Source: Roridomyces roridus (lineage: Eukaryota; Basidiomycota; Agaricomycetes; Agaricales; Mycenaceae). From it: a stretch of 64,000 bases of DNA. Made by a program: the position numbers and the translations under genes. A model generated the notes under the pieces. It searched no databases. It had not been told where the DNA came from and worked only from the letters and a program-made list of their open reading frames with translations. Numbering within the stretch: the first letter of the stretch is position 1; every line of letters starts with the position of its first letter. The stretch is taken from the NCBI GenBank assembly GCA_029378245.1, contig JARKIF010000174.1:1-64000 (forward strand), read 5' to 3'. Shown in pieces: positions 5,204-25,720 of the stretch.

Positions 5204-5642
5204 ATGTCGGACTCACACCTAGCCCCAAGCCCGGAGCGTGTATTAAACGTCACCGATGCCCTTGGCTACCTCGACGAGGTCAAAGCCGAATACGAGAACC
5301 AGCCAGAAGTGTACGAGACCTTTCTCGATATAATGAAAGACTTCAAAACCCTAAAGTGCGTTTTGAGCTGTTCCATAGCTATATACCAAGTTTTCACGAT
5401 GAATCCACAGATTCGACACCGTAGGCGTCATGGAGCGCGTCTCCCAACTCTTCCATGGTAGCCCTCGTCTCATCGAGGCATTTAACACCTTTTTGCCTGT
5501 TGGATATCGGATGGAACTTGTGTCTGGTGGAAGGATTGTGATCATCACCACGAGGAGTGGTAAATTCATACGCAATGCATCGCAGGTTGTCGGTGTCGCA
5601 AATGACGTCCGAATGGCTTGGGTTCCGAGAGCGAGAAATTAA
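5204..5642 (+). CDS. single-PAH-domain protein, SIN3-like miniprotein
   Basis: Exons 5204-5355 and 5411-5642 join in frame to give 127 aa. Nearly the whole protein is one paired amphipathic helix (PAH) domain: helix 1 has [14 protein letters not shown], then [16 protein letters not shown], the intron, then [20 protein letters not shown] and V-G-Y-R-M. This matches PAH1 of the full-length SIN3 gene at 21723 almost segment by segment, and the intron lies at the equivalent place. There is no HDAC-interaction region. PAH domains bind short amphipathic helices of transcription factors, so the product could compete with SIN3; that is inference. It ends with a short unrelated tail after position 100. 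Confidence 0.8.
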
Positions 5643-7131
5643 ATACATTACAGTAGACAAGTTTAACCAGAGAATGGTCACTCAGACTCTGGGACGCGCG
5701 TACCCGAGCCATAACCAGTGACCAAGAATTGTGGGTAGCCCTAAGAAAGGAGCATATAACCCAGATCGGATAGGGCTCGAGTTTTCCGCCAACGAATCTG
5801 AAGATCATCTCGAAAGATTGGTCGAAAAGTACTAGTTGGTGGAGTCGGGGCCGGCGCCGAGAATACTAGCGCCATGTCTACTCGGTCTCGGTCTAGTATT
5901 GAAACGGCGCGTGTTAGCTGCCTCCGTGGGTGTGGGCCGTTCGGGCCTCAGCAGATGATGAAAGATTCATCGGCGTCTACACAGCGAAATATGTCCAGGG
6001 AGGAGCCCAAGTTACTAGGGGAATTTGAATGCGCTCAGTTCTCTGCAGAAGAGAATCAAGACACAACGAGGTTCATATTTGCATTTTCGAGGACGGAATA
6101 GAGACGACCTACTGTGCACACCCCATGAGTCCGGCGATGTCAACCCCGAAAGGCCAGGATTCAAGTAGCTGCTGCGGAATCTCCTCATACTAGTGTCATG
6201 TCGACAATTACTTGGGTTTGTAAGGGAGCGGCCCGAGCGGGGGCGAGAAGGCAACGGGCACGGGGACTTTGCTGATTGGAAATGAGACGATAGACATAAG
6301 TGTGGAGTGAACAGACAAGAGGACAATAGGTGTTGATATTGCAAAGCCGCCTAAAGTTTAAACGATCCAAGTTCATGTGAGATGACGCCGACGTCGGCTC
6401 AGTTTCGAATGAGCTGCATTGATGAGTCGCGGATGCCGTGCTTCAATTACACGGAGGGACGGTAGGCAGCAGCAGTGCCAGATACGATGGTCGCCGACGC
6501 GGCACTGTGTTTTCTTGCAAGACGGAATCCACGAGTGCGACCGTCGCGACCTGCGGATGTTGGATGAACGTTGAACCTCGAAGCGGAGGCATTTAGAGGA
6601 TTGGAAACGGGAAGCGTCAAGTAATCCCGTAGCTTGAAGCCCTCCAACTTGAGGATGGTGGCGGAAAAACAAGATTGAAAGCTGTGCCCGGCCATCAAAA
6701 TTAACTCCGCCATCGGAGTTTGTACTTGATCTTTGCTTCTACCATCTTTTGCATCCAAGTTGAAGACGTCGACGCGCTCTACAGCTGCCTGAGCTCTAAT
6801 GAATGGTCTTTTCCCTCGTATTCGTCTCCCGATTTCCCCACATCATCGACTTCCCCGCTCTTCGGCACCAAAACACGCGACGACGAAGAAAAACTCTGGG
6901 ATTTATTTCCCTTGCCTGCCTCTTTGCCTCTCAATCTAGACTCGGTCTCGGTCGTTCTGGACGCGTTTGCTATTGGACCCGGTCATCCAACCAGACCCAA
7001 CACTGCGTCGCGTCAACATCTACAAATATTTCTTTGTTCTCTTTCACCCCCACTCTCAAGTTGCCACTCACCAGGTATCGCAATCTTTTGCAATGTCTCT
7101 AATATCTGAACCTAACTCGAGATAGCTCACC
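5643..7131. other. intergenic, holds a dispersed repeat at its 3' end
   Basis: No convincing coding sequence. The right half (6345-6724) is a repeat also found inverted at 14546-14870. The last 300 bp before 7132 are CT-rich and may be the leader of the next gene. Confidence 0.45.
6345..6724 (+). repeat. dispersed repeat, copy 1 (inverted relative at 14546-14870)
   Basis: Shared landmarks with the reverse complement of 14546-14870, in the same order: AACGATCCAAGTTCATG, GATGAGTCGCGGATGCC, GCAGCAG, GATACGATGGTC, AAGCGTCAAGTA, GCTGTG-CCGGCCATCAA and finally ACTCCGCCATCGGAGT, a 16-bp near-perfect hairpin. By eye roughly three quarters of positions agree in the matched blocks. Both copies lie downstream of a PAH-only gene and in the same orientation relative to it. 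No coding capacity is evident; the class (MITE, or remnant of a larger duplicated segment) is open. Confidence 0.65.
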
Positions 7132-8088
7132 ATGTCCTCCAACACCAGGGATGCGTACATTTACCATGTCATCCGGCACACCGATGGCGTCTCTGACACC
7201 GAAATCCCGGGGACATATACGACTTCAGCAGAAGCCCGCGCCGCCGCATTTGCCGATATAGTCAGCAAAATGGGAGCCGCTCCTTTCCCAATATTCGACT
7301 GGAAACTCACAGAAGACGGCGATGTGCTGCCATTCTACAAAGCAGAATGTCCAGAGGGGAGGATGATTCGCGTGTGTGTTGAGAAGAAGGCAGCATCGAA
7401 ATCAACACCCCGGGATGGTGAAGCCGCTACCGCCGGTGCCACTTTGTCCTTGGCACCCTAAGGTATGTGGCACAACTTGAATATGCGGTTTCTGATAGAC
7501 AGGCAGCATCGACACCGGCCTTCCGGGATGTTGTGGCCGCTAGCGGTACCCCTTCGTCCGTGGCACTCCCAGGTATGTTACAGAACTTGACTATGCATTT
7601 TCGTCTCATGGAGATGTCTTTCAGCAGCTGCCACTCCGAAACCAGAAACCAAGCCTGCGAGGCAGGCGCCGGCGCGCAAGGAAGTGTGGATCGTCATGAA
7701 GACCGTGCACGACAACTACTACACAGACTACGACGACTCGCACCCCCCCAGCTGTCTTGCAGCAAAGGTTGCATTCGCGTTCTTGCGTGAGGCTAACCAC
7801 CATGCGCGGCAGGTGTTATACTGGGAGTGCGAGCCCGACGAAGAAGATGAAGATGAAGGAAACGGAAACGAGGACGACGAAGAAGACGGAGGCGATGACG
7901 ATGGCGAACAAAAACTTCCCCGGGGGATTCATTTCCAGGAGAAGAACATTGGTTCTTCTACTGAGAAATACGTCGGTGACGCGTACTATGAAAACTCGGA
8001 CGACAGTGGAACTTACCACGTCCACGTTGAGGTGGAGAATCTGAGTTTCCGCCGATTGGCGCGCCAGCACAACAATCGAAAGGCTTGA
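7132..8088 (+). CDS. unknown two-repeat protein with acidic C-terminal half
   Basis: I do not recognise the family. A model with exons 7132-7371, 7503-7572 and 7625-8088 keeps frame throughout and gives 257 aa. The N-terminal part (A-Y-I-Y-H-V-I-R-H-T-D-G-V) and a later segment (V-W-I-V-M-K-T-V-H-D-N-Y-Y) look like two diverged copies of one small domain. Then comes an acidic run of D/E/G/N around residues 140-175. The first intron in this model (GTGTGT to ACAG, 131 nt) removes the first of two tandem copies of an exon-plus-intron unit; if that copy were retained, TAA at 7459-7461 would stop translation. Alternative splicing is therefore possible. Confidence 0.5.
7389..7625 (+). repeat. tandem duplication of an exon-end plus intron unit
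   Basis: Copy 1 (7389-7502) and copy 2 (7502-7625) both start GGCAGCATCG, both run through CGGGATG, GCCGCTA and a TCC-TTGGCA / TCC-GTGGCA block, then share a donor region AGGTATGT and AACTTGA-TATGC inside the intron. The exon part is 70 nt, not a multiple of three, so including both copies shifts the frame. Copy 1 carries a stop codon, copy 2 does not. Confidence 0.65.
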
Positions 8089-8280
8089 AGAAGCGGAAGG
8101 ATGAGGAGGCCGGCGATGATTCCAGCTTCTAGATCTACAAGCCCCATTTATTAGCAAACACAGTTATAGACGAGCGCCAATGAATTGTTTCATGTAATCT
8201 GAAGTTGAACGAGGCGCCCTCGGGCTGTGATGTGGATCATTGTGGGCGTTTGATGCGAACCTGGCTTGCTCTCAACCACC

Positions 8281-9153
8281 ATGTCCGAATCGAAAATTCT
8301 TCCACCTGAACTCGAACGCGAAATCTTTGAACTCGCGTATCGACTTGATCCCAGCGACGGTCTAAACCTCAAATTGGTTGCTCAGCGCGTCCGAGTCTGG
8401 TCGGCTAGATTCACTTGCCTCTGGATTACTCTTACATAAACCCTTGCCCAGGATCGACATGCTTGTCTACGAAACAGTAAAGCTCCCAACCCAAACGGCC
8501 GCTACCAGATTTTGGAAGCAGCCCGAGAAAAGGAGCCTGCATTCTTCGCTGCCGTCAAAAATCTTTCCTTTGCGTATCCTGTCTTGTCAACGCAGGCGGT
8601 GGAGATTGTCTCTCTCTGCTCTGCCGTTCAGCAGCTTGCATGCTGGATCAACCATGATGAGACGCCTCAACTACTTCTTCTTATTCGACAACTGCCACTC
8701 CGTCGCTTGTCCATCGAGCACGAGCACTTTGTAAACGTCCTCGCCGCGTCCGCGCTGGCATCCTCCCCCTGGACCTTGAACCTCACACATTTGGAACTCG
8801 TCTTTTGGCGGGAGGCGAACGACGGGGTGCGATTCACGCAGCAGCTCGTCCATGATCTCTGCAAACTCCCTCGGCTAACACATGTAGCCCTGTCGTTGGA
8901 CTTTAAAGACGGCGTCCGACAGGAACATGTGGACCTGATAACATCGGGGCTCCCGAACCTTTCTGTACTCATCATCCTAGTCAACGCCGATGATGACCTT
9001 GCGGGCAATTTTTCCGGTGGTTGCGTGGTCGAGATTTCAGAGGAATCGATGCCGGATGTATCGGAGGTTCATCATTCGGAGGATAATGACTTGTGGGCTC
9101 GTGCTGAACGCATGATTGCTGCTCGGAAGGCTGCTGCGTCGCAGAGTAGCTAG
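8281..9153 (+). CDS. F-box-like / leucine-rich protein, LEREIFE family, one frameshift
   Basis: Exon 1, 8281-8399, encodes M-S-E-S-K-I-L-P-P-E-L-E-R-E-I-F-E-L-A and ends inside a Trp codon exactly as in the 3934 gene; exon 2 starts at 8452. Exon 2 opens in one frame (M-L-V-Y-E-T-V-K-L) and continues in another (L-E-A-A-R-E-K-E-P-A) after a run of T at about 8505-8509; restoring one T would keep the frame. The remainder is open to the TAG at 9151 and shows leucine-rich segments and the family C-terminus L-W-A-R-A-E-R-M-I-A-A-R. The break could be a homopolymer consensus error or an inactivating mutation. Function as for the 3934 relative. Confidence 0.65.
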
Positions 9154-9251
9154 TAGACTTGTTGGCCCTTGCGCGAATGCAGTACGCTGTATTTTTTATT
9201 ATTCATTGTTTATCATCAATTATTGATGCACCTCTCTTGCTCTTGACTCTC

Positions 9252-9362
9252 ATGTCAAGAATCCCCCTCGAACTGGAACGCGAGATTTTCGAGCGGGCTT
9301 CCAGACTGCACCAAGTACTAGTCATCACGAAGATCAATTCCGCTGTCGGAGTTGAACGTTGA
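9252..9362 (+). pseudogene. N-terminal remnant of the LEREIFE family
   Basis: ATG at 9252 opens M-S-R-I-P-L-E-L-E-R-E-I-F-E-R-A-S-R, the family N-terminus, then diverges and stops at 9362 with no LRR body following. It lies 99 bp after the end of the 8281 gene in the same orientation, as expected for a truncated tandem copy. Confidence 0.6.
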
Positions 9363-10565
9363 ATTGTTATCTTGCTTCCCACCCGTTGGATCACATATCC
9401 TGCACCCAACACGTACGCGTCTTGCAGCCAAGAGTTCTACTTGTCCTTTCCCTCGGATCCTTATTTCCCACATCACCGACCTCCGCAGCTCAGAGACGTG
9501 GGTCATGCACTCTGCAGCCTGCTGGGCACCGTTTGCTACTTTTCTTCGTCGCCGGATTCTTTGAAGTTTTCCCGACAAGCATTCGGCAGCCCAAATTCGA
9601 GGGATCAATTGGCCGTCAATCCGTTACTACCGTGACTTTTCAACTCTCAACTAGTGCTTGCCCCCCTCGGTACCCCGAAATGTGAAGCTATCTAAGGCTC
9701 GAGGTCCGCCGACCGCCAAACCCCGCTCCGGAACCCCCGACACAATTCATGATTTTCTTCCGTGCCAAGCACAAGACTTGACTTGTACCATACCAGCCAA
9801 GTGCGCTCGGCGTGCGAAGACACGAAGAGATCGTCGTGATCGCCGTTCGCGTGGTCCCTCTTGTCATTGAATTTAAACTCTTCCATCTTCTTCCATAATG
9901 CCATGACGAAATTCTGATTCCGTGGACGCCAGCCACGACATGGGTTGCTAGGACTCGAGTGCTCGGGCTGAGCGTTGGCCGAGCTCCTGGCATCGTGACC
10001 CCCACCTATTCACTCACCGACCCGAACCGGACCGAAGAACACCCATCCTCGGCAAATCGTCGTCGCCCGTCGCTGTCTGTCTCTCGTCGCACCTTACCAC
10101 ACATGGCTCTGTCTCACTGGCATTTTCAATGATTCAATCCAATTCAATCATTCACGAGCCAATCCCGTCGTCCCGGAACCTGCTCCGGATGACCGGTACG
10201 GAAATCTTTCGTTTCCCTCTCGCCGACTTGCCATCTTGTCAAGTTGTCTACTTGGAAGCCCGAGTCTATTCATGCTCTGCATTCAGACGAGTGAAAACAG
10301 GTGACAAGCACCCCAAACCCGGGCCACAGACGGGCCGCAGAACGAGCAACGCATCTCCCGTTTCCTCCCCTTTTATCATCTTGCCAAGTTGTCGAATAGT
10401 TTCTACCGTACTCGTACCCACATCCCACGAGAAACCAAACGAGACATAGCTATAGATGAGCGTACGATAACGGATAGTATATACGATATAGATTCAAGAG
10501 AGAGAAAAAAATGGTACAACTTCAAAAATTCCACTTGATTCATTCAGTCCAAGCAAAAATTCACC
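9363..10565. other. intergenic, no supported gene
   Basis: Small overlapping ORFs on both strands, none with recognisable sequence or splice structure. The right end (10440-10565) is probably the 3' flank of the minus-strand membrane-protein gene. Confidence 0.4.
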
Positions 10566-12347
10566 TCACCCATCCCCACCAAGCGGCGGCACCCAAGGCC
10601 ACCCCGTATCATGCACTTCACCGGGCCCAGAAGGCGCATGTCGTTCGCGATCGCCGGGAGTAGAATCCGAATCCTCTTGAGAATGCAAGTCCGCCTTCGA
10701 GATTTGCCGCTCATCTTCATCTTCCTGCTCCTCAAACCCATCATCGTACTCCAAAGGCGGAGCACTCGGCTCTCCAAAGCTATCCTCGTCTTCATCTTCA
10801 TCTTCCAGCGCTGGCGGTTCTCGTGCTCGCAATCGCAGCGGAAGCCCAGTACTAGGACCCGCCTCTGCCCCTCCCTCATATTCCTCCTCCTCAAACGGCG
10901 GCGCGCTCGCCTGCATCCTCCGACTGCCGCTCGATCCCTCCAAAAACTCTTCCTCATCTTCATCTTCAAACGGCGGAGCACTCGGCATGGGCAGCGCCGA
11001 ATGAGGTGTACTCGGACCAGCTTCACCCTCCTCCTCATACACATACGAAGGAACGTCGACTTCCTCGTGCACAGCATACGCCCTCTCGAGCTCCATCTTC
11101 TCCCACAGAGCCGGTCGGGCACTAGGCGGTGGGGGTAGCTGCGAAGACGATGCAGCCTCCTCCTCCTTGGGTGACTCTGGCGCCCATTCAAACTCAAGGT
11201 CATCTTCACTAGGCACAGCGCCTCGCTCAGACAGAGGAGACAAAGGCGGCGCAGACGCCCTGGCCGCAAGCTCCTCCAATATCGCCTTGTCGTCGGTGGC
11301 AAGATGTGCTCGGGGTGGTGGAGCTGGCGATGGCGTGTACGGCGGGTGGTCTTCCACCTCGCCCAAGTACGAATATGAATCCGAGTCGAGGAGATGGGCA
11401 GGGAGTTTGCCTGGATTGCGTGGTGGTGGTGGTTGAGCAGGAGATGGAGATGGAGGGCGGGGGTAAGCTGGTGGAGCTGGTGGTGGTGGAGGGTCGGATG
11501 ATAAGTCCAGGCTGGAAGTCGAGGGCGAGTTGGAGGACAAGGATGGGAGGGTGTTTGTAGAGCGAGAGGAGGATGTAGTGGGAGTAGGGGAAGTCGAGCG
11601 GTGGGGGACAAGTGTCTCGACCGAGGCCTGCGGCGACCGGGCAGTCGTCGGCGTTTGTACGGCGGAAGATGACGAGAGATGGTGCGAGCGACGTCCTCCT
11701 CGGCGCTGCATTGCAAGGTAACGAGTATTTTCTCGCCAACGGGCACTTGCTCGGCTCATACTGTTGTACCACTTGCGCGCAGCAGCCGTCCCGTCCGACT
11801 TTTCCTTGTCTATATTCGAACTACGCTTTTTGTGTCGACGTTTCTCCACGTCAGAGCGACGTTGCTTCTGGCTGCGGAGGCGAAGAAAGTGGAAGCGAGT
11901 GAGGATGATGCAGATGGCGACTGCGAGGACCACGGAGAGTGCGATGGTCAGCTTGACGCGCCCAGGGGTGGCTACACTCGGGCGCAGCCAGCCATCGGGG
12001 ATAGACGAGGAGAACGCAGCGTCTTCCTCGCTCATCACAGTCGCCGTTGGTGCTGCAGTGCAAGTCTGCAAGGAACAAGTCAATTAGGCCGAAATTCCCC
12101 GGAGTAGGTAAAAGTGACGGACGTCGCATATGGTAGATCCGACGAGGGTGTATGAGGGCATACGACGCCAGACGCCATCGGTATCTGGACCGTATGGCGG
12201 GGGCACACGGTGTCGGGCGGTGTGGATCGTCGTGTCTATACCGCTGATGGTAGGAGGAGGCACTGGTGGCGGAGCAGCGTGGGTCGGGTAGGGTTTCAGG
12301 GCGGCGACGAGGGCAAGTAGTGATATCGCCTTGTCTGGCGAGAGCAT
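10566..12347 (-). CDS. single-pass membrane protein with PPxY and PSAP motifs in a long cytoplasmic tail
   Basis: Exon 1 (12123-12347, 75 codons) and exon 2 (10566-12065) join in frame across a 57-nt intron; product 574 aa. Residues 1-25 (M-L-S-P-D-K-A-I-S-L-L-A-L-V-A-A-L) look like a signal peptide; a short ectodomain with two close cysteines (about 71 and 77) is followed by a membrane span near 115-135 (T-I-A-L-S-V-V-L-A-V-A-I-C-I-I-L), then a basic stop-transfer. The tail of more than 400 residues is Pro/Ser/Glu-rich and contains P-P-A-Y and two copies of P-S-A-P-P followed by acidic residues, plus one A-S-A-P-P. PPxY is the ligand of Nedd4/Rsp5 WW domains and PSAP/PTAP of Tsg101/Vps23, so an adaptor or cargo of the ubiquitin-ESCRT route is a reasonable inference. 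Family not recognised. Long ORFs on the opposite strand are shadows of its biased composition. Confidence 0.75.
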
Positions 12348-14545
12348 TCATGCCAAGGACAGTAGATAATCTGCAACTGCTCGCCAAGACCAGTCAGACC
12401 GCCGGGGGAGGGATGCAGACGTGGGGAACAACAACCGTCAATACTCCTTATACCTGTCCCATATATTTTTACGACTTCTATTTTCGTTCCATCTCTCGTT
12501 TTTTTACTATCCCCGCAGGAATCCCTTTCCCGACGGGCAGGACGATTGCAAAGCTCTTCAGAGACGAGGAGGAGGAGGAGGGATCCAGTCAAAATTCGGA
12601 CAAGTGTTTCTACGGCTACAGCTCGGCCGGTATCAGTATGGAAAAATTGACCTTGTGCGCCAAACAACCACTAAATGCGTCCACTTTCAATTCTTGTTGG
12701 ATGGCGACACGCACGCAACCCACGCTCGGGACAGGCTGGATACCGGCGTTAGTATTTTTTTACTGCATCTATTTTCGGAGTTTCAACTTTTAGGGGAAAA
12801 ACGACCAGCCGGCGAGCCGAGTTCCAGAGTCATCGCAGGATGGTACATTCTCGAAAAATTACCCGGGTCCTTCTTTGCTCTGCTCCAACATTATTAGTTC
12901 TGTCCGCGGTCAAAATTGGCACCCCCACCCCACCTATTTTCTTCTGCGGCGTTGTCGAATTGCAAGAATGCCCAACACTGCCTCCGGACCATACCATACC
13001 CAATACCCTGCAACCCATTCCATCTTTCTTCCATTTTTGTCCCTCTCTGCCCTATTCCCCATCCCGCGGTTCAATTGGGGCAAAGTGCCTTATTTTAGTG
13101 GTTGGTCGACGGTCGTGGGATGCAACGGTTGAAACGGAGCCGCAATAAGTAGTCTTCTCGAAATACTTGTGTTACTGGATTGGAACGGCAGCCAAAAAAG
13201 ACGGGTGCTTACGAAGAATACCCGGGAGCCAGACAGACAGGCAGCCCGGTGGCGTCCTTCATATCGCATCCCTCAGGCGAAAAAGTCGAGGCTGACGGCG
13301 GATGTATTAGGTGCAGGGCAGAATCAGTCGAGGGTACGTAGTAGAGTAAGAAAGGAAGTTAATAGAGTCTTTAGGCTGAGACGAGACGAGATGAATTTAA
13401 CCGTCGTCGGAGGTCCGAATGCGAGCCCGCCCTAGTGTCCATAATTAATGAATGAGTCTTGAGTCTTGATCCCCGCGCCTTGCACTGTGAGGATAGAACT
13501 GTATCAGAGGAAGAGGAGGAAGCGAGGATACAGACCAACACACTCCAGCGAGCAGATATATGCTCTCTGCTGATAAGGAAAAGCGAAGCAAAGACTACAT
13601 CGGGAAGAGAGATTCCCAAAGACAAAGATGGTGCAATATTGGCTCCAGCCCGGATTAGCAGCCAACCCAAATCAGCGGACTCGGATCTGCCCCCCACGAA
13701 GCAAGAGTGAGCCACCGCCAGAGTACGAGTCCCAGTTGATTTCAAGTGCAGGCTACATAGGCATCCCAGTTGCTAAAGATTCAGAGTCGGTCGGGTCGAA
13801 TCGGCGACCTGGGCCCTGGCTAGCTAGTAACCAGCCAAGGCTGTTTTCGGGTTGCGATCCTTCGGACAGGCCTAGACAACTTGTAAATCGATTCAAGCGC
13901 TCGGAGGCAGCGTAAAATTAGGTATACATGCCCAGGTCCCCGCGGATTCAAGTTCGAGGACTCGATCGAAGAAGGGAAGGGGTCTTGCTGGTTCCACTGA
14001 GGATATCTGGGTTGGGATCGGAAGTCTGGACCAGGTTGAAATGAAATGAAATGATCAGGCGGCAGGCCTCGGAGCGTTTGGATTCCGAGTGGTTCTTGGT
14101 GGGAGGCTTAGAGGTACGATTTGAACTTTGAACCTTTGAAGCGGCCCAGGTGCGAGGTCGGAGTCGAATTGAGGAGTGTGAACGTTAACGTTTGAAGGAG
14201 GGAGACCGACCGCGGAGATCTATAGTACTAGTCACCAGAGAAGTCGATGGCGAGTCAGCTGCAGGGATTCAACCCAGTAAAGATACAACACGACACGCCC
14301 AAGGACTCGAGATCGACCGCGGACAGGAATACAAATGGCAGCCACGACTGAGCTGGGCACCCGGCGATTCAGAAGAGGGGACTTCCGGCCGCCGCCGCCG
14401 CGGGCAACATCGGACGTTTGGGACCGGAGTACGGGCAAGTCGGTGATATGGGAAAACGGGATGGAATAGAGCCTGAGGCAAGTCCGAGGGAGAACGCTAT
14501 TAAGAATGCGTGGGATGGTTGCGGTGGGATGCAAGATTACAAACT
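12348..14545. other. intergenic, no supported gene
   Basis: The left part is the 5' flank of the minus-strand membrane-protein gene. ORFs up to 175 codons occur but have no conserved features, lack plausible starts and overlap each other. I see no RNA gene or repeat other than the element that begins at 14546. Confidence 0.4.
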
Positions 14546-14870
14546 CCGATGGCGGAGTTATCGGATTAGCGCTTGATGGCCGGACACAGCTTGGAGCTGC
14601 TCAAGGTAATATTCCGCAAAGGACATCCACTCGACATTCACTGAATACTTGACGCTTTTCGTTGCCAATATTAGTCCTCCTCCTCCTCGAGCTTTCATCG
14701 CGGACTCCGATTGCTCGTCATCTTAGTCGGTGACCATCGTATCTGCTGCTGCGCACCGGCGTCCCTCTGTGTACTTGGAACTCGGGCATCCGCGACTCAT
14801 CGAATTCGCTCTCAGCCAACGCCGGCGCCATCTCACAATGAACTTGGATCGTTTAGGCAGCTTTTCAACA
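14546..14870 (-). repeat. dispersed repeat, copy 2 (inverted relative of 6345-6724)
   Basis: The reverse complement reproduces the landmarks of the 6345 copy in order, beginning with AACGATCCAAGTTCAT and ending with AACTCCGCCATCGGAGTTTGTA. The hairpin ACTCCG-CCAT-CGGAGT closes both copies. The element begins only about 30 bp beyond the stop codon of the PAH gene at 14898-15761. Confidence 0.65.
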
Positions 14871-14897
14871 TCAGCACTTATCGATGTATTGCTCTCT

Positions 14898-15761
14898 CTA
14901 CGACCCCAAACCATCCACTACATCGCGCACCGATGTACCATGAGGACCGGTGATAGTAGCAATCCTTCCAGAAGAATCAAGTTCCATCCGATATCCAACA
15001 GGCAAAAAAGCGTTGAATCCCCCGATGAGAAGAGGGCAACCAGGGAAGAGTTGGCAGACGCGCTCTATGACGCCAGGGGTGTCAATTCTGTGGATTTTTT
15101 TGTTAAAACCTCAACAATAGAAGAGCTCATCAAGCAAAAAATACGCACTTTTGGGATTTAAAGTCCATCATCACATCCAGAAAGGTATCGTACACCTCTG
15201 GCTGGGTACTGTATTGGTTTCTGACCGCATCGAGGTAGCTCAAGGCATCGGCGACATTTAGTTTACCAGACCCACTCGCGGTGGGCTGTGCGGATCGAGA
15301 GACGGCGGGCTTGTGGGCGCCAGTTGGAACGTCGTCGACGAAGAACTGCGATAAATCGTGGGTTATCGTCTCCGTAGGGGTGGTGAGTGTAATGATCCCT
15401 TTGGTAGACCCGTCGATGTGATATCCGACAGGCAAAAAGGTGTTGAATCCCTCGATGAGACGAGGGGTACGATGAAAGAGCTGGCAAAGGCGCTCTACGA
15501 CGTTTGGAGTGTCGATTCTGTGTCCGTCGTGAGTTACGACTCTTTTCAACAAAGAGAATCAAGTAAACCAACGCACACTTGGTTTTTAAAGTCCATCATC
15601 ACCTCGAGAAAGTGGTCATACACCTCTGGCTGGCCCTTGCATTGCTTCTTGACTTTCTCGAGGTAGCGCAGGGCATCAACAACATTTAGTGGAGGCTGTT
15701 GAATTGGGGCGGGCTGTACAGCAGACTGAGAGGCCGATGCAGACATGGTGGTCGATGTCAA
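14898..15761 (-). CDS. two-PAH-domain protein, SIN3-like, with one junction out of phase
   Basis: Three exons on the minus strand: 15579-15761, 15149-15517 and 14898-15087. Two PAH domains follow each other: the first with [14 protein letters not shown] and [18 protein letters not shown], the second with [14 protein letters not shown] and [18 protein letters not shown]. Each domain is split by an intron at the place where SIN3 PAH1 is split. The second junction keeps frame (AA|A); the first does not, because its exon ends CAA before GTGTGCG where the sister exon ends CAA-AA before GTGCG, a 2-nt difference. No HDAC-interaction region follows. Possible SIN3 competitor, or a copy beginning to decay. 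Confidence 0.65.
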
Positions 15762-16161
15762 GTTTCAGATGACGTGCGCCGATCCTTTTCGCCCCTATAT
15801 CATTTTCCCAATCCAATTGCCAACCAACAGCCAGGAATCTCCGCCGCAATAAAATCGTGTACTCCGTACTGATGCAGTAGGATAAATTCTCCGTCATGCA
15901 AATCATCTTTCGTGGTGCGGCAGACAAATCTGGACCCTTTGTGGCGGTGTGATAAGGCGCCGATCATTTCGCCCCTATCTTTAGTTTTCGATCGACTCCG
16001 CGAAGAGGCCCGACCAACCATTGAGGCATGAATTTCTGCGGAAATAAAATCAAGTATTCTTGGAATTAGGATGAATACTACAGTAGGTCTACGGTTGCCT
16101 GTCTTCGCCGGCATGCCCACTTCACGATACGGCAGACTCTATGTGAACCAAATCTGAATCT

Positions 16162-17000
16162 TCAAGCTTCAAGAGGCGTGTTCAACTGTGCAAATTCGTC
16201 CACGAGATCCGGCGCGTCTTTGAACAGCTCTGCTACTTCTTTGTGGACTTGTGACTATAAAACATCAGCTCGAAGCATGATTACCGTGGATAGAAAGACA
16301 TACAGAAGAACTAAGCCCCCTGAACCTAGCGCGCATGATTCGCACAAGATGAATATATTTATTGGTACTGGGCTTTTTCCTCACGTACTGGCCCCGGCTT
16401 CGTGTTTTCCCCTTGGTTTTCAAGGCGTACCGCGCCTTGACCTTGTTCATGTATTGAACCGGCGCCGGCGAGTGGCTGACCCCAAGACCCAACCCGTCCT
16501 GCTGCACAGTCAGAGCGGGTTTGTCCCAGGCACCAAGGAATGGGATAGGAGACGTGATGATATTCGGCTGGAGCGTAGGAACGCCGTCTGCGACACCGAG
16601 AAACTGAGAGGTATCGCGTGTGATGGAGGAGCCAGGAGTGATAATAGTGATGGTCCTCTCAGGAGACGGATGCATGCGATATCCCTCAGGCAAAAAAGGG
16701 TTGAATGCCTCGATGAGATGAGGGCTGTGTCGAAAGAGGTGGGAGATGCGCTGCATGGTTCCCAGGGTGTCGAGGCTGCCATGTCCAGTCAATTGAGAGC
16801 CTCTTCAAATAAAGAGACTCCACAACGCACCTGCCTCTGCTCAATCTTTTGGAAATATCGAGGAACTCGGCGTAGACCTCGGTTCGGCGGTGCTTGAATT
16901 GGTTCTTGACTGCGAGTATGTACGCCACTGCTGGCTCCAGTTCTGTCTCATCTAGTTGACGTTGGCCTGGAGGGAGGTTTGTAGATTGGGTGGTCGACAT
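16162..17000 (-). CDS. PAH1 plus degenerate PAH2 protein, SIN3-like miniprotein
   Basis: Exons 16831-17000, 16304-16775 and 16162-16254 join in frame to give 244 aa. PAH1 is diverged but clear (V-A-Y-I-L-A-V-K-N-Q-F-K, E-V-Y-A-E-F-L-D-I, then I-S-H-L-F-R-H-S-P-H-L-I-E-A-F-N-P-F-L-P). A linker follows, then a degenerate PAH2: V-Q-Y-M-N-K-V-K-A-R-Y corresponds to [11 protein letters not shown] in SIN3, and the last exon V-A-E-L-F-K-D-A-P-D-L-V-D-E-F to [15 protein letters not shown]. It stops there, where SIN3 continues into PAH3 and the HDAC-binding region. It is thus a truncated SIN3 paralogue with an intact reading frame. The start is the first ATG before PAH1. Confidence 0.75.
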
Positions 17001-17225
17001 AGGGGGCGAGCACAACGACGGCGTGAGACAAGTTTGAGACAAGTATCTGATGAGCGGATCGTGACGGCAACAACGGCCGCCGCGGTTCTCTCTTCCCCAC
17101 ACCACAGTCAAACGACCAAATCTGTTTCCCCTACCCTCCTAGGAAATCCGCCGATCGAGTGGCTTCCTTCCTTCCGTCGTCGAAAAAGAGAGGCACAGAT
17201 CGAGCGTGCACTATGGAGCTGCATC

Positions 17226-18783
17226 ACGTTGAAATTCAACGTAATTCCTGGTGAATACCAACTATCAACGTATCTTCCGTTGACTTCCGGTGATTTTGAT
17301 TCACTGTTGAATTTACGTTGAATTCTGATTCAACCCGTTCTACGTTGAATTTCACGGCACTTCATTAACATGCCCAGGTTTCAACCCAATGAAGGTGAAG
17401 CCAATTGCCCTCGGCTCCACTCGGTACGTGTCCATCTTGGGCCCTAACCGAACTCACAATTTTCCTTGGAGACCTGATCACGACGGTTGTCTCAAGTCCT
17501 TCAAACTCCGACCGGATCGGTGACCGAGTACCGATATTGCGCCATTGATTGCGACGTGGCGTGATTTCCTTGCTCTTTTTTCTTCCTTTCCTCCATGTCG
17601 CCCACGTCCTCACGCAAGCCTCGACTTCCCCCAGCTGCCACCACCTCGTCCACACCGCCGTCACGCGATCTCATACCGCTCACCTCCGACCCGGCGAGCC
17701 CCAGACCACTGTCTTGAATGCCACCCTCGCCCTCAGGACGTCGTCTCAGATCTCCCGCTCGCTCCCCATGCTCATGCCCGCCTGCACCCTCTCTGCGTCC
17801 GCAGCCGCTGACCACTGCACGTCTCAAGCCTACCACGTGCCGCCCGCCGGCTGTCTGCCTTCCCCAGGGCCACGCTTCTATATCACTCTCGCCGTCAAAA
17901 CCTTCCCCCGCTCCAGGCCTACTCCCTTCATCCAGAGACCCTCTGCGTCCGCAGCCGCCGCCCCCATCGCGCTTCCCGTCGGCCCTTGGTGACGGTGCCG
18001 TTATCCACTCACCGGTGTTACTACCGGCTATCGCAACGCAGCAACAACGCGCCGTCTTCCGCTGTCAACGAATCGCAAAATGAAGCCCAAGCCCCACGGT
18101 TTCTCAAATCACGCCGACCACCATGTCAACGCCAACGTCGCCGCTCGAAGCTTGCTCTGCCGTGGTCTTCAAGTTGCACGCTGCTCATATTTGAAGACCT
18201 CCGTTCCTGCTGCTTCACTCTGCCATTCCCATGCAAGATGTTTCGCCACACGCTCAACTCATGAAGTGCATCAAATCTTTGGCTTTCGACTTCGTCAAGT
18301 TCGTCAAGTCCGAATCTGCACCAGTCTGTACCCTATCCAAGTTCAAGGTGTTGCTGCCGCTTGCTCCCCCGTTGCCTTTTCGCCTTCCTCACGCCCCACT
18401 GCTGTCGTCCGTCCTCGCGGGCGGGCCCCGCCTTCATATACGGGTTGGTCAGCCTCCACCTGTAACTAGTTAGTTTAGCTGTAATATTCATTCAATGCAC
18501 TTGTTCTTTTCCCCTTTTAATTGCCCGAATGAGGCTTTAGTGAGAGTGTATATGGGTGCTGCAGTGCTGGCAGTTTTACCCAATTCAACGTAAATCACGT
18601 CGAGATTAACTGGGAACCTCATGTGGAAGGAGCAGTGATTTTGGCCATATCACGTTGATTATCGACGTAGATTTCAACGTAATCTGGAGGTGAAAATCAA
18701 CGTAGGCCCGGTGAAAATCAACGTAGGCTTCAGTGAAACTCAACGTACCGCGTGGTTAAAACTAGGTTGAAATTCAACGTACC
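17226..18783. mobile_element. foldback-like element with TACGTTGAA/TTCAACGTA repeats at both ends
   Basis: Both termini carry GTTGAAATTCAACGTA (17228-17243 and 18766-18781), itself nearly palindromic. The left end (to about 17360) has several further CAACGTA/ACGTTGAA copies and the right end (from about 18588) at least seven, in both orientations, some in GGTGAAAATCAACGTAGG units. Between them the sequence is CT-rich with no transposase; an 18-bp direct repeat CTCTGCGTCCGCAGCCGC occurs at 17791 and 17941. Repeats confined to both ends of a 1.56-kb block suggest a non-autonomous foldback DNA element. I could not define a target-site duplication. Confidence 0.55.
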
Positions 18784-18923
18784 CTACCCCCCCAGAGAGG
18801 GATTCCGCAAGATTTACCAAGGCCAGTCCAAAAATGATACCCCTCCTCAAGCCACGCCCTGTATCGTGGATTATACATTCTGCATTGACAAGGACAAAAT
18901 TCAAGTCGCCATGCACATTTAAT

Positions 18924-19428
18924 CTACGATATCACACTGGCACCGAGATACTTGGCAATTTGGTTGCGCCGCTGCAAATCGGTGGCTGGTGGCGAAGTCA
19001 GTCATAATGAATGCCCATGATGATTTGGTTGACTGACGACCGTCAGCAGGCAAAGCAGGCAGGTTGAGCGCCTTGGCAGAAGCGATGCAATTTTCCTCTG
19101 CAGAACATGCAAGTAAGACATTGTGATCAAGTCGAACGAGACAGGAGAGAGTGCTGACTGGTGAAGTTGAGGAGCTCATCGCGCGTCAAGGGATTGGGTG
19201 CCGCGAGAAATTTAAGGACTGGTCCAACAAGGGGCTCGGATGAGTTTTTGACTGCGTTCGCAACACGCATAGGGTGGAGGGCCAAGCTTGGGTTGGACAT
19301 ACGTGGCTTCCATCGTAGCGATTACGCTGCTCTGGTCCTTGATTTGCTTTTCCATGTTCTGCAGCGCGGCTTGAATGGGGCTTGGCATCGACGTTCGAGC
19401 CCGGGAGAGTCTGCGAGGTCTCTGTCAT
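18924..19428 (-). CDS. small coiled-coil protein of a repeated basidiomycete family (tentative)
   Basis: Reading on the minus strand, ATG at 19428 opens M-T-E-T-S-Q-T-L-P-G-S, followed (after a one-base shift in a C run) by a short coiled coil, I-Q-A-A-L-Q-N-M-E-K-Q-I-K-D-Q. A second block has L-T-R-D-E-L-L-N-F-T; a junction there to K-E-N-C-I-A-S-A-K-A-L-N-L-P-A-L-P-A-D is in phase; the last block R-R-N-Q-I-A-K-Y-L-G-A-S-V-I-S ends at TAG 18924-18926. The order coiled coil, DELLNFT-type helix, then R-R-N-Q-I-A-K-Y-L resembles small proteins I associate with Mug135-like C-terminal regions, but that is memory of style, not a match. Two junctions need a one-base correction, so it may be decayed. 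Confidence 0.4.
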
Positions 19429-20153
19429 GGTTTGAGAGGATAAAGGAGGAATGTTGTTTGTTCCAAAAAATGCAACCCTTTTCAATGAGCGATCGAGCGG
19501 TGCCGGTGAGCCCCTATTAACCAGTTAAGGTCTCAGTCAGAGGCAGCCAACTTGGAAACCAGCTCGACACAGCAGAGTAATGCGCTATCGAGCGGGTTTG
19601 GTCATTACTGACGAGTGTCGAGAGGCCTTCGATAGACTACGACGACTATACGGAAGATGCTTTGGGAAAAACAGAAGGGATTTTTGTTGAAGAAGGTATG
19701 AGGAATCCGCCGTGGCTTTGGGATTACCAGTACGAGGTTTTCACTAGAAAATGAAAGGTAGCTTGTTTTACAACGGAGGATGCAATGTAAATTTACCCAC
19801 CTTGTTCAAGTTCGGGTAACAAGAATGGAAATGCTATGACGGAGCCATCGACTCGCCCAGAAGAGAAGAGGTTATAACTTTGCCGATGTGTTAGCGCGTG
19901 TTCTGAATCCCTTTGAAACATTTCTTCTATTTGAGGTTTTGTGATACAAAATTCGTACGTCTGCCTCGAAATCGACACGCAATCTCAACTGGGTGACGCA
20001 TACGAGGAGAATTGACGGATCAGCACCTCTGCCTTGTCTGGGAAGAGTTCAATGGTCGAATGAGTTGAAGAACTTGGAAGTAGACCGGAGCCGGTCTGTC
20101 TATGAACAAGTGTCGATAAGCGAAGCTTTCGATACGACAGGCTGGATTCGAGC
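19429..20153. other. intergenic, no supported gene
   Basis: Short ORFs only. The part next to 20154 is probably the 3' flank of the kinase-like gene. Confidence 0.4.
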
Positions 20154-21486
20154 CTAACTTGGAAGAAACGAACCAGGAATCTCCAACGTGTAGTTCTCAG
20201 CTTCCCAATCAATGATTCTGGCAAGAAGGGAGGCATTCCTCAGAGAACCGCCAACTGCCATGGCATCCGCCCACTCGGGGTTGAGTTGCGCGACCTTGAA
20301 CCAAATCATCCGATTCAACTCTTCCCGCTCTTGGCGTAAAACAGATGGATGGTCGTAGTCCCAGAAAGACGGAAGTTTGAATATATCCCAGATGGGGGCG
20401 GTTCTGGTACCTTCCCAGTCGATGACGGCGAGGACCTTAGTGGGATCGGTGGGAGACACGAGAACGTTGTGCAGTCTAAAATCAGGTGGTTTGAGGCCCA
20501 AAGGGTGTGCCCGCGCCCCCTTCCACAGGAATGATTCGGCTTTGAGGGTAGCAAGGTTACCCGCGACCAGATGGGCAACGGCCTCCTCTTCTTCGGGACT
20601 CTTCCTGAACTCGGGTTTTATCTCGTAGCGGAGATCCGAGTTCGCCACGGCCAGAATCCACTCTGGTACCGTCGCAAATGGCCCGCATTTATCTCGCGGG
20701 GGAGGGGCGTCGACTGAGATGATTTGGGGGCACATCATTGAAAGCGGACCGACGACGATGTCACCCTTATTGTCATAGCTCAGACTGCCAATGGCGTCGA
20801 AGCGCAAAGACAAAAGCTGGTTCCAGTAGTCCGCGATTGATTCAGACAGCGGGCGCATCTGTTGCATACTCATCTCCGATAAAGCTTGCTCGATTCTCCG
20901 GCCTTCAATCTGGATGAAGAGTGAGTGCAATTACAAGTCATAATCAAGGCAACTAACGAATTCCATGAGCATCCAGGGCCCACCGACTTCGTTGTCAAGG
21001 TCTTCGTCGTAAAAATATATCTCAGGAATAGCAATGGTGGTATTTGCCTTGAGATACCGCATTGTCGCCACCTGTAAAACCTATCAACATGTGCAGCATG
21101 TAAGAGATAATGCGCACCTCAGATGAGAGTTTCCACGGGACTCTGCGAAGCCTATCTGTGCCAATGCAGAAAGCAAAGTCGACTCGAGCAATGAAGACAC
21201 GTTCAGAGCCAGGGGTACCAACGTCCATTTCGATGATCTATACACACGTCAGCTTGGACCGTGCAATTGGAAGGTCGAAGTACACTGTGGTTTCCTCCTG
21301 TGATATCATTGTTAGAGTAGGGAGAAAAGGCCGCGGGCGACTTGCCATGATGGGTAAATCGTCCTCTCCTGCATTTCACGTCATCTTTGGAAAAGAAAGA
21401 ATCTATGCGTTCGGCCATCTTCTTGACATCGGGAACAGGCCAAGATGGCTCTTGCTCCTCTGGATGGGATGTAGAGTCGCTGCTCA
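20154..21486 (-). CDS. aminoglycoside-phosphotransferase-like (APH/choline kinase fold) protein
   Basis: The last exon (20154 to about 20890) encodes most of the C-lobe: P-P-D-F-R-L-H-N-V-L-V corresponds to the catalytic loop and V-L-A-V-I-D-W-E-G-T to the Mg-binding D-W-E motif of APH-like kinases. Upstream exons supply V-A-T-M-R-Y-L-K-A-N-T and V-G-G-P-W-M-L-M-E-F, the hinge region. The catalytic Asp and the Asn five residues later are present, but the usual His two residues before the Asp is Pro, as in many fungal members of the family. The start at 21486 (M-S-S-D-S-T-S-H-P) is the first ATG in frame. The junctions between 21250 and 21350 are uncertain; one option uses a GC-AG intron (GCAAGT). 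Substrate unknown: fungal members are mostly uncharacterised and this does not imply drug resistance. Confidence 0.7.
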
Positions 21487-21722
21487 TGGGCAATTGAGGA
21501 ATGTGGCGACAGGGGCGAATGACGTAGCTCCACGATCTCGACAGCCAGTACCGATGAGATGGTGGCAGATGGGAAATCTTCACTCAGACTTTGGGCAATT
21601 TGGAACACAATCGAGAAGCTGGAGCATGGTTGAGAGGACAGAGCTGCTTGTCGTGGTTGAGAAAGATCAATCGCGTCAGAGGTTGCCGTAACCTTCTTCT
21701 CCTCCCCTTCTCCGCCGGGAAC

Positions 21723-24700
21723 ATGGAAGACGTCCAGCCCCATATCAAAAACGAGATGCCGGATCCCGCTGACGGTCCGAGAGGGCTCGTCTCTCCGTCA
21801 CTCCGACCAGCGAGTCCAAGGTCCATCCTGAACCCCCCACACTCTCCTCCTCTGCGCGCCCTGCCGATGGCCACTTCTTCCCAGTCCAAGGCGGCCTCTC
21901 CGCCCAGAAATTCGCCAGAGCAGCGCCCACTCAATGTGACCGATGCGCTCAGCTACCTTGACGCAGTCAAGAACCAGTTCCAAGACCAGCCAGAGGTCTA
22001 CAACCGCTTCCTCGACATAATGAAGGATTTCAAAAGCCAAGTGTGCGTCTTTGCGCTTTCTTTTCACGTATCTACTCACAAAACAGTACAGAATTGACAC
22101 CCCTGGCGTTATACAGCGCGTCTCCCAGCTCTTTCACGGCAACCCCAGTCTTATCCAAGGATTCAATACTTTTTTACCTCTTGGTTACCGCATCGACGTC
22201 TCCCATTCCGATCACACGATCACCGTCACCACCCCCACTGGCACGTCCACCCAGAACACGGATTACAGCCATGGCCAGCACTCTCGCATCGCACGCGACA
22301 TCCCTGGATTTGGGCCTAATATCGCGCATCCCATGCCATTTGCAGGCATTCGCAACCCCGTTCCTGCTCTCCCTCCGATAGGCAGTGGCCCAGGCTCACG
22401 CTCCCTCACCCCGCTGTACCACGTTCCACACCCGCAACAAGTACCGCGCCAGGCTACATTCGAGCCACCGCCATTTGGTGGCGGAAATCCGAACCACCCG
22501 CAGACGCAAACGAACGCTGCCGCGTCCTTCCTCGGGAACCTAAACAACAACAGTCGCAACGCGCCGGAAAAGCAGCAGGCTCCGAGCGGCGAGTTCAACC
22601 ACGCGATCCAGTACTTGAACAAGATCAAGGCGCGCTACGTAGACGATCCCAATACGTACAAGCAGTTTTTGGATATTCTGCAGGCGTATCAGAAGGAGCA
22701 GAGGCAGATAAAGGATTCGCAGGTCTACGTCCAGGTTCAGCATCTGTTTAGAGACGCGCCGGATCTTTTGGGCGAATTTCAGGTGTTCCTGCCCGAGATG
22801 GCTGGTGGGTTCCCGCATCATCCATCGTCTGCACCTTGGCCGATGGACGATAAACCCGTCAAGAAATCCGCTCAACCCGTCAAGCGCAAGAAACGGGTAG
22901 AAAAAGATCCGACCCCGGTGCCTCCTGCAAAACCCGCACGCGTAAGTTTCTCAAAGGAATTATCGACTTGTGGATTAACGCTCGTTGTAGCCCGCAAAGA
23001 AGGCCAAGCACCATCACAAGCCCGAGGGCTCGCCTGCGTCCTTCTCAGGCTACCACTCGCCCCCGCCGTCTCAGATGGCGCTGCCTTCACTCAGCGGCGG
23101 TTCCTCTGCAGGCAAACTCCTGTTCTTTGACCGCGCGCAAAAGGCGCTCGAGAACCGGCAGGTGTTTGAAGAGTTTATGAAGCTGCTCTCTTTGTACTCC
23201 AAAGACGTGATCGACATGAAGACGTTGATTGATCAGACGAGGGATGCGTTCCTTGGGGATGGGGAGTTGATGGCTGAATTCAAGGAGCTGGTTGGCTGGG
23301 ATGGTGGTCCGGAAGCTGCCGTTGAGAGGGGTCCGCCAGGGAGTGTGAGGACAGGGCCGCCCGAGGCGCTTTCGGCACTGCCTGCGGATGACGGGGAGGG
23401 TCCTAGTTATCGGAGGATGCCAGAGAGTGTCAGTGCTTTGTTTTCGATTCTGCTCAATGATTGACTTTTTACAGGAAAGTCGACTGGCTTGTTCTGGGCG
23501 GGACGAGCTCTGCCGGTCGGTGCTCAACGACGAGTGGGTTTCTCATCCGACGTGGGCATCCGAGGACGCCGGGTTCATGTCGCACAAGAAGAACTCGTTC
23601 GAGGAGGCGCTGCATAAGAGCGAGGAGGAGAGGCACGAGTATCACGTGCAGATTGCGGCGCTCACTCGCACGATTGCGCACTTTGAGCCACTCGCTCTTC
23701 GGATTGATGACATGAACGCCGAGGAGCGGGCCAATTTACGGCTGAAACCCGATTTTGGTGGGTCGGCCAAGGGTTTATATCATCGAATGATCAAGAAGAT
23801 ATATGGGCGGGATGGCGGGGTGGAGATTATCCAGGCGTTGCAGGATTGCCCGACCGTGGCGGTACCCGTTGTGCTGGGGAGGCTCAAGCAAAAGGACGAA
23901 GAATGGCGAAGGGCGCAGCGCGAGTGGGGCCGGACGTGGCGCGAGGTGGACGCCAAGAACTTTTACAAGAGTCTTGACCACCAGGGGATCAGCTTCAAGG
24001 TGAACGACAAGAAGAATATCACGGCCAAGTTTTTCGTCGGGGACATTGAAACGCTCAAGAGTGCACAAGACCCGCATTGGGCAAAGACTCTGCCTGCACA
24101 GCTGGACTATAGCTTCCAGGACACGTCTGTCTTGCACGATTCGCTCAAGATGGTGTATTCGTTCTTGGATCATTCGCAGGGGCAGTACAGTGCTTTGGAG
24201 CGGAGGAGCGTCGAGTCGTTCTTGCGACGCTTCGTGCCTTTGTTGTGCATGTACCCCGCAGCCGAGTTCAATGCGGCTTGCGGCCCACTTGACGGATTGA
24301 TGCAGCAGCAGGAGGAGGAGCAACATGAACAACCCTCACGCAGCGGGGGACGTCGGTCTAACGGGAGCACGCATTCCATGTCGAACGGGGTTGGGGTAGC
24401 TCCGGGGGACTTGCGCAAGAAGCTGCTGAGGACGGCGCAAGAGAAGAATAACGAGTCAGCTAATGCGTCACGTGCCCAGTCACAGGTGCCAGCGGATACG
24501 GCGGATGTGTGGATCAAGGAGAGGACGGTGGTCGCCGAGGCTGTGAACGGCAGCGCACCGCACGCCCGACGTCCGTTTTTCGCCAATACGACCTTTTATA
24601 CGCTGTTGCGGCTCCTTCAGGTGAGTTATCGTTCTGCTTTCATTGACCTTGATTCTGATATCAAGCAGCTTCTGTACTCCCGGCTCGCCATGTGCAAAGT

Positions 24701-25720
24701 AATTGGGCAGAATCTCGCCAATGAAAAGCATACATCTTTGCTCGTCAATCCCGTTGCTTCCGCACTCGGGCTGGACGACCCGGCTGGGCCGCCAGTGGTA
24801 CTCGCGCAGACCATCCAACCGCTTGGTGTCAAGGAGGCGGAAAGCGATGGACCTCCGAATGTGGTTTACATGTACCTACTTGATGCGTGCGAGAAGGTGT
24901 TTGACAACGAGCTGGATCAGGCGACGTTTGAGGAGCACATGCGATGGTTCTTTGGCGAGAAGGTATTGTCCTTTTCAATTTATTGCTCAGAGGATTGACG
25001 ATATGGCAGGCGTACCATTTGTTCACTATCGACAAAGTCATTACGGCGCTGGTCAAGCAGGTGCTGACGATTGCTGGGGACAACAAATGTCAGGAGCTGT
25101 GGACGTTGCTGCAGAACGCCAACTCGACGGCTGGTGAGATTGGCATGAGCGAAGCGGATATCGTGAAATATCGACGAGAAGCGGAGCGGCATGTTGGTCA
25201 GGACGACCATCTGTATCGAATTGAATGGGTTTGTGGATTTCATTTCTCTCTTGCGGTTCTTCATATTGACATCTTTCATGCAGTCACGAGAGGAACGGGC
25301 TTTGCGGTTGTCCCTGATTGCGGCAGATGACCCGAGCGTGGATGGCGGTGATCGCTGGCGGGAGTACGTCACGACGTACGCAATGCGGCTACCGACCGAG
25401 TGGAATCCTCCTGGGCCGGTGGATGAAGATGGAGAACGGATACCGAGTGTGCCCTTCCTCCGAAGGTGGGCTTTCTTCTGTCTCTCTCTCTTTGTCTGCC
25501 CAATGCTGAAATTCATTCTAGGACAAGACGAGCAGGGGAGGTACGTGCGGCGGTGGTGGAAGATACGATGTCCGTGCGCATTGTGGCCCCGGCCTATAAG
25601 ATTGTATATGAGGCGGGGGCGGAGGATTTCGTATGGTGTGGGATGCGAGCGCCGTATGAGGCTCGTGTTCGTGCGGCTGCGGAACGGAGGAGGACGAGGT
25701 TGGCGGAGATGTTTTCATGA
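21723..25720 (+). CDS. SIN3: SIN3 transcriptional corepressor
   Basis: Eight exons (21723-22040, 22087-22941, 22991-23428, 23475-24620, 24669-24962, 25010-25228, 25284-25465, 25522-25720) join without a phase error to give 1216 aa. PAH1 lies at about 71-150 ([13 protein letters not shown]), PAH2 at 273-342 ([19 protein letters not shown]), PAH3 at 431-494. The HDAC-interaction region follows from about 540 ([20 protein letters not shown]), then the conserved C-terminal region with [10 protein letters not shown] and [12 protein letters not shown]3 is the nuclear scaffold that brings Rpd3-type histone deacetylases to DNA-bound repressors. All expected domains are present. Three shorter PAH-only relatives lie upstream at 5.2, 14.9 and 16.2 kb. 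Confidence 0.95.

What the first reader, a model, noticed from the sequence alone, without database searches (positions are those of the whole stretch)
5204..25720. Three PAH-only miniature SIN3 relatives within 20 kb of full-length SIN3
Genes at 5204-5642 (127 aa, one PAH), 14898-15761 (two PAHs) and 16162-17000 (PAH1 plus degenerate PAH2) keep the SIN3 PAH fold and its intron position but lack PAH3, the HDAC-interaction region and the C-terminus present in the 21723-25720 gene. PAH domains are ligand-binding modules, so HDAC-less copies could titrate transcription factors away from SIN3, as microproteins do. Two of the three have fully open spliced frames. I know of no described natural family of PAH-only SIN3 competitors.
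Basis: partly seen in the sequence, partly recalled or inferred. Interest (0 to 1): 0.8.

Follow-up and report, generated by a model that had tools for sequence, protein, structure and literature searches.

The report
Partial SIN3 gene copies, mushroom genome
A small mushroom carries, next to a complete copy of the gene-silencing scaffold SIN3, three short partial copies that hold only its docking pieces; similar short copies occur in many mushrooms and appear to have arisen more than once, and here they look only loosely kept by selection, so a dedicated competitor role is possible but unproven.

Summary
The window is from Roridomyces roridus (Mycenaceae). Gene A (5204-5642, +, 127 aa), B (15746-14898, -, 242 aa) and C (17000-16162, -, 244 aa) carry PAH domains above Pfam's cut-off, share SIN3's PAH1 intron and lack PAH3, HDAC-interaction region and C-terminus. 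Corrections: B is two PAH1-type domains; all three splice to open frames; A, B and the SIN3 already have NCBI records. PAH-only proteins are recorded in many Agaricomycetes and are rejected as one clade in three tests, so they are not one competitor family. A and B evolve under weak purifying selection (omega about 0.5, range about 0.32-0.93) against 0.03-0.05 in full-length SIN3; C is probably decaying. A PAH-only SIN3 product is already described (SIN3B short isoform). No transcript data were at hand. Off-window surprise: in this genome SIN3 PAH1-PAH2 is fused in frame onto members of a large array of PHD-like genes, other members of which end in pieces of SNF5 or of a MAPKKK-like gene, reminiscent of integrated domains of plant NLRs.

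The parts
5204..5642 (+). Gene A: 127 aa, one PAH1-type domain; exons 5204-5355, 5411-5642; NCBI holds a 73-aa partial record (P0121)
14898..15746 (-). Gene B: 242 aa, two PAH1-type domains, each with the SIN3 PAH1 intron; NCBI holds a 185-aa record (P0001)
16162..17000 (-). Gene C: 244 aa, divergent PAH1 plus remnant of PAH2; three exons; probably decaying
21723..25720 (+). Full-length SIN3 (type II), 1216 aa, eight exons; PAH1-3, Sin3_corepress, Sin3a_C
   Evidence: Pfam run on the 1215-aa record P0171
5356..5410 (+). Intron of gene A at the SIN3 PAH1 intron position
22043..22091 (+). Intron 1 of SIN3, inside PAH1, the ancestral position

Best explanation
A, B and C are partial copies of the 5' end of a type-II SIN3 gene, found so far only in Roridomyces roridus. 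A PAH1-linker-PAH2 piece was duplicated at DNA level (intron kept) and then multiplied locally: C keeps a PAH2 remnant, B is an internal tandem duplication of PAH1, and A is closest to B's second half. A and B encode, or until recently encoded, free PAH1 modules under weak purifying selection; C is probably decaying. If translated they would fold as PAH1 and could bind PAH1 ligands without bringing a deacetylase, a weak and probably dispensable SIN3-antagonist effect. Shown: anatomy, derivation from type-II SIN3, relaxed constraint, no single PAH-only clade. Inferred: order of events, when the copy left SIN3, translation, binding, effect.
For: Same intron in all four mini PAH1 copies; repeats linking A, B, C and SIN3. 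Synonymous divergence A-B2 0.32 against 0.49 and 0.61 for the other mini pairs; the codon tree with A next to B2 is 10.6 and 12.9 log units better than the two others. Mini omega 0.51-0.55 in four codon-model runs, p against 1 of 0.017-0.031; SIN3 omega 0.026-0.045. PAH-only rows rejected as one clade: p-AU 1.2e-5 (35 of 65 rows), 1.2e-4 (26 of 56), 1.1e-18 (21 of 51, without fusions and long branches). Lentinula's short protein pairs with Lentinula SIN3 in all three trees (100/99). PAH1 fold predicted for A, best PDB match mSin3B PAH1-REST 2czy, TM 0.80.
Against: Frames are better kept than neutral drift predicts: substitutions alone leave A open in about 16% and B in 3-6% of simulations (36% and 20-21% at half the branch length), far fewer with an assumed indel rate, so a stronger role is possible. 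The stem before the minis has low omega (0.06-0.12), so their ancestor was long under strong constraint, perhaps as a fuller SIN3; the minis diverge from SIN3 more at synonymous sites than the two type-II SIN3 genes do from each other, so they may be older than the species. A groups with an 85-aa Cylindrobasidium protein (bootstrap 96-99) or, without it, a Lentinus one (91/41); these are long branches, but an older stand-alone lineage is not excluded. Mycena metata and M. polygramma short proteins group together in all three trees (bootstrap 86-97), so some PAH-only lineages are shared between species. Mycenaceae PAH-only rows as one clade are rejected only weakly (p-AU 0.024, 10 of 51 rows); the R. 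roridus minis as one clade, with or without SIN3-II, and A+B+C as one clade are neither rejected (p-AU 0.29, 0.32, 0.48) nor shown. All PAH1 trees rest on about 75 columns.
Confidence: 0.58

Rival explanations
1. Dedicated HDAC-less SIN3 competitors: A and B proteins occupy the SIDs of PAH1-binding repressors and so relieve SIN3 repression, as microproteins do.
For: PAH1 fold predicted; weak but significant purifying selection; both have NCBI protein records. Ala126 and Lys155 of human SIN3A PAH1, reported as conserved positions with strong intermolecular contacts (PMC13068551, passages), are kept in A, B1 and B2, while C has lost the lysine (sequences); I placed the numbering with a human sequence recalled, not fetched.
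Against: Omega more than ten times that of SIN3; no expression or binding data; no clear ortholog found; the best-known PAH-only product, the SIN3B short isoform, still represses basal transcription (PMC5902990) and its knock-down did not enhance BMP4-dependent transcription (PMC4914931, passages), so loss of the HDAC region does not by itself make a competitor.
Confidence: 0.23
2. Plain pseudogene fragments of SIN3 that happen still to be open.
For: Small fast-evolving pieces in a genome with several SIN3 pieces; C has lost most of PAH2 and its PAH1 omega is not distinguishable from 1 (0.46, p 0.10); the NCBI records differ from the splice found here.
Against: Mini omega below 1 at p 0.017-0.031 in four runs; neutral survival of B's frame 3-6% by substitutions alone; splice sites kept.
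Confidence: 0.15
3. Full SIN3 paralogues with hidden HDAC-binding exons.
For: None found.
Against: No SIN3 similarity beyond residue 192 near B and C in contig C102; only the PAH1 part is repeated near A; each frame ends in a stop soon after the PAH part.
Confidence: 0.02

Closest known systems
Mammalian SIN3B short isoform (SIN3B-SF, SIN3B(293), Sin3b-202)
   Same: SIN3-derived protein with PAH domains only, no HDAC-interaction region (PMC5902990 and PMC4914931, passages)
   Different: Made by alternative splicing from the full gene, has PAH1 and PAH2; here separate genes, with one or two PAH1-type domains (A, B)
Short 'paired amphipathic helix' and 'PAH2 domain-containing' records of Agaricomycetes (Mycena, Lentinula, Lactarius, Armillaria, Jaapia and others)
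   Same: Short PAH-only database proteins; Jaapia P0002 and Mycena metata P0003 also carry two PAH1-type matches, P0003's second one cut short
   Different: Not one clade with A and B. Lentinula's pairs with its own SIN3 in three of three trees, Mycena pura's and Armillaria's in two of three each; M. metata and M. polygramma ones group together; several records are partial
Full-length fungal SIN3
   Same: PAH1 sequence and intron position; the stretch after PAH1 is also recognisable by eye
   Different: A, B and C lack PAH3, HID and Sin3a_C; omega about 0.5 against 0.03-0.05
MicroProteins (single-domain competitors of multidomain regulators)
   Same: Domain architecture would suit that role
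   Different: No competition or expression shown; the concept is recalled; a search for microprotein with dominant negative and Sin3 listed 2 papers, both off topic by title and abstract start

Membership tests
SIN3 PAH-domain proteins | PAH domain above Pfam gathering score | tested here: met
   A 55.2, B 106.8, C 54.9 bits against cut-off 21.3
SIN3 corepressor proper | Sin3_corepress (HID) and Sin3a_C domains | tested here: not met
   Absent from A, B, C; present in the neighbouring gene's record
SIN3 corepressor proper | PAH3 | tested here: not met
   No similarity beyond SIN3 residue 192 at B and C in C102; A and B are PAH1-type only
PAH1 subtype | PAH1 sequence type and intron | tested here: met
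   A, B1, B2 align to SIN3 PAH1 with the same intron; the three best structural matches of P0121 are PAH1 domains
SIN3-titrating microprotein | Derived from the target's interaction domain, lacking the effector part | tested here: met
SIN3-titrating microprotein | Expressed, binds the same ligands, opposes SIN3 | not testable with these tools
   No transcript, protein or binding data
One conserved PAH-only gene family | Members form one clade apart from SIN3 | tested here: not met
   p-AU 1.2e-5 (35 of 65 rows); 1.2e-4 (26 of 56 rows after dropping 8 records marked partial and one with a HID); 1.1e-18 (21 of 51 rows after also dropping the 3 R. roridus fusions, C and the Cylindrobasidium row)

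The most novel reading that the evidence does not exclude
In Roridomyces roridus the SIN3 PAH1(-PAH2) module is copied out of SIN3 as a bait: as stand-alone proteins A and B, and as the C-terminus of members of a large tandem array of PHD-like genes (C1:402-420k and its allele C190) whose other members end in the finger region of SNF5 or in a segment of a MAPKKK-like gene. This would be a fungal counterpart of plant NLR integrated domains, displaying pieces of chromatin and signalling regulators to detect or absorb proteins that attack them.
Probability: 0.12. Interest if true: 0.8.

Novelty: new member of a known kind. Interest (0 to 1): 0.4.

Why it matters
If A and B are expressed they would be natural, genetically separate, HDAC-free SIN3 modules, a clean test of whether loose PAH domains antagonise SIN3. 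Independently of function, PAH modules seem to be shed from SIN3 repeatedly in mushrooms, and in this genome they are also fused into a fast-changing gene array beside SNF5 and kinase-gene pieces, which points to SIN3's first exons as reused material.

Tried and rejected
Hidden HID or C-terminal exons near A-C: none found. Allelic comparison of B and C (window vs C102: 1 difference in 849 bases, 0 in 839) as evidence for selection: rejected, because the region from 11 kb on has only 0-3 mismatches per kb anyway. Pairwise omega of A, B1, B2 against the type-II SIN3 genes (0.09-0.25) as evidence for mini constraint: set aside, because SIN3's own slow branch and near-saturated synonymous sites dominate it. 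Origin of the minis from the R. roridus SIN3 after it split from other Mycenaceae: not resolved by the trees. PADLOC scan of gene B's record: no match.

Literature. Six searches aimed at PAH-only SIN3 proteins, microproteins or SIN3/PAH genes in fungi listed no paper on a fungal PAH-only SIN3 gene family; rows listed of papers found: 8 of 8, 20 of 34, 2 of 2, 15 of 47, 10 of 19, 2 of 2. I saw titles and abstract starts of these, and passages of six papers; no paper was read whole. A search for an R. roridus genome paper listed one paper, on luminous fungi, not read; a Mycena genome-expansion search listed 8 papers, none read. Plant NLR integrated domains: listing only, plus the WRKY19 passage.

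The linear-gap spliced aligner gave spurious long tails at C1a, C1b and C190; only the PAH parts confirmed by BLAST are used. Confidence of the best explanation went from 0.60 to 0.58 and of the competitor rival from 0.22 to 0.23 because one search leaves the age of the minis open.

Full report
Where it is from. The full-length SIN3 (1215-aa record) and gene B (185-aa record) are in the protein database under Roridomyces roridus on a contig of 65,751 bases, the length of the window's contig; gene A is there as a 73-aa partial record named after the mSin3A PAH1-SAP25 complex. The species is in Mycenaceae, Agaricales.

The observation. Pfam finds PAH in each, and nothing else above its cut-off except PAH_ZNF598 in B, a related PAH model. 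The SIN3 PAH1 intron is kept in A, in both halves of B and in C. The neighbour at 21723-25720 splices to 1216 aa; its record has three PAH stretches, HID and C-terminal domain.

The rest of the genome. A PAH search of the assembly gave 27 matches, all 42 candidates scored. They fall in: the window contig C84 (7) and its near-identical partner C102 (6); a second type-II SIN3 on C442 and C118 (3 each; 87% DNA identity to the window gene); a more divergent SIN3 on C1:2446k (3); and PAH pieces on C1:408k (2), C190:147-148k (2) and C1:420k (1). A DNA search with the gene A region found no second copy of A; C102 begins at the counterpart of window 7.4 kb, so A's allele is not covered.

Selection. 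On 75 codons of PAH1, full-length type-II SIN3 copies have omega 0.026-0.045, the mini branches 0.51-0.55 (four runs, p against 1 of 0.017-0.031; likelihood range about 0.32-0.93, interpolated), and the stem before them 0.07-0.12. With C included: minis 0.53, C 0.46 (p against 1 of 0.10), C1a/C1b 0.44 (p 0.03). Simulated neutral drift along the estimated branches leaves A's frame open in about 16% and B's in 3-6% of 4000 runs by substitutions alone, 36% and 20-21% at half the branch length, and in 0.15% or less with one indel per ten substitutions at full length, an assumed rate. So A and B are neither tightly kept nor plainly dead. Branch lengths come from PAH1 only and were applied to whole genes.

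Relatives. Short PAH-only or PAH-mostly proteins are common in Agaricomycetes records (the first list shows 120 of 331 hits, and animal, plant and unnamed metagenome proteins are among them). I put 26 of these short proteins, chosen by hand from the named fungal rows, into trees of PAH1 with 27 full-length SIN3 of other fungi. All short rows together are rejected as one clade: p-AU 1.2e-5 (35 of 65 rows); 1.2e-4 after dropping eight records marked partial and one with a HID (26 of 56 rows); 1.1e-18 after also dropping the three R. roridus fusion pieces, C and the long-branched Cylindrobasidium row (21 of 51 rows). Lentinula's short protein pairs with its own SIN3 (100/99) in all three trees; Mycena pura's does in two (98/77, 94/77) and Armillaria's in two (84/82, 98/84). 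Against a purely species-by-species origin, M. metata and M. polygramma short proteins group together (97/86, 86/85, 96/84). A, B1 and B2 fall together, with a long-branched row of another species among them each time (Cylindrobasidium 88/84 and 92/73, Lentinus 66/72). C's place is not resolved. Where the minis leave the SIN3 tree is not resolved, so 'only in R. roridus' rests on not finding orthologs, not on the tree.

Structure and binding. AlphaFold2 of the 73-aa PAH1 of A gives four helices at mean pLDDT 73; best PDB match 2czy, mSin3B PAH1 with REST (TM 0.80). PAH1 binds single helices of repressors in a hydrophobic cleft (PMC6168491, passages). Binding by A or B is inferred, not shown.

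What is known. SIN3B's short isoform has only PAH1 and PAH2, does not interact with HDACs and still represses basal transcription (PMC5902990, passages); knocking it down did not enhance BMP4-dependent transcription, whereas knocking down the long isoform did (PMC4914931, passages). A review notes numerous PAH proteins with only some of the SIN3 domains and a PAH in plant WRKY19 (PMC7948954, passages). I therefore file the finding as a new member of a known kind: locally amplified partial SIN3 copies.

The side discovery. The PAH pieces on C1:408k, C1:420k and C190 are not stand-alone. C190:136-158k is the allele of C1:398-428k. There the same kind of gene, with a C-x2-C-x2-W-x-H-x2-C finger, is repeated. 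The finger is PHD-like only weakly: Pfam lists PHD below its cut-off (E 0.04-0.42) in five of ten ORFs scanned, and one ORF matches PHF13 at E 0.0085. A 100-aa piece of it finds 71 matches, 65 of them on C1 or C190, counted exon by exon and with alleles. The C190 ORF of 402 aa runs from this finger into PAH1-linker-PAH2, 70% identical to SIN3 over 312 columns. At C1:410.9k the same N-part (58% identical over 246 columns) ends in a finger segment 84% identical over 63 residues to the region after the SNF5 domain of a C112 gene. At C1:402.9k and C190:152k it ends in a segment 82% identical over 98 columns to an ORF at C491, which lies about 3 kb upstream of a kinase domain whose best PDB matches are MAPKKKs; that segment and kinase belong to one gene is inferred. 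Pieces of three different regulator genes at the ends of one gene kind recall the integrated domains of plant NLRs (listing).

Noticed in passing
G000:C1:398-428k (L019-L021) and allele C190:136-158k (L016-L018): Large tandem array of weakly PHD-like zinc-finger genes whose C-termini differ: SIN3 PAH1-PAH2, SIN3 PAH1, an SNF5 finger segment, a MAPKKK-like gene segment, a weak C2H2-like finger; 71 matches to a 100-aa piece genome-wide.
   Followed up: partly
G000:C118 (L012): The C118 allele of the second type-II SIN3 reads one in-frame stop in the spliced alignment, absent from the C442 allele; its 988-aa database record still has HID and C-terminal domain.
   Followed up: no
G000:C1:421.0-421.1k (L021:3002-3118): A PAH2 half that by eye resembles the other, more divergent SIN3 kind (C1:2446k) lies about 1 kb downstream of the type-II PAH1 fusion at C1:420k, apparently a separate fragment.
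   Followed up: no
window 7410-11000: The window and its partner contig C102 are 86% identical up to 9.7 kb but nearly identical (0-3 mismatches per kb) from 11 kb on: an abrupt change in allelic divergence.
   Followed up: no
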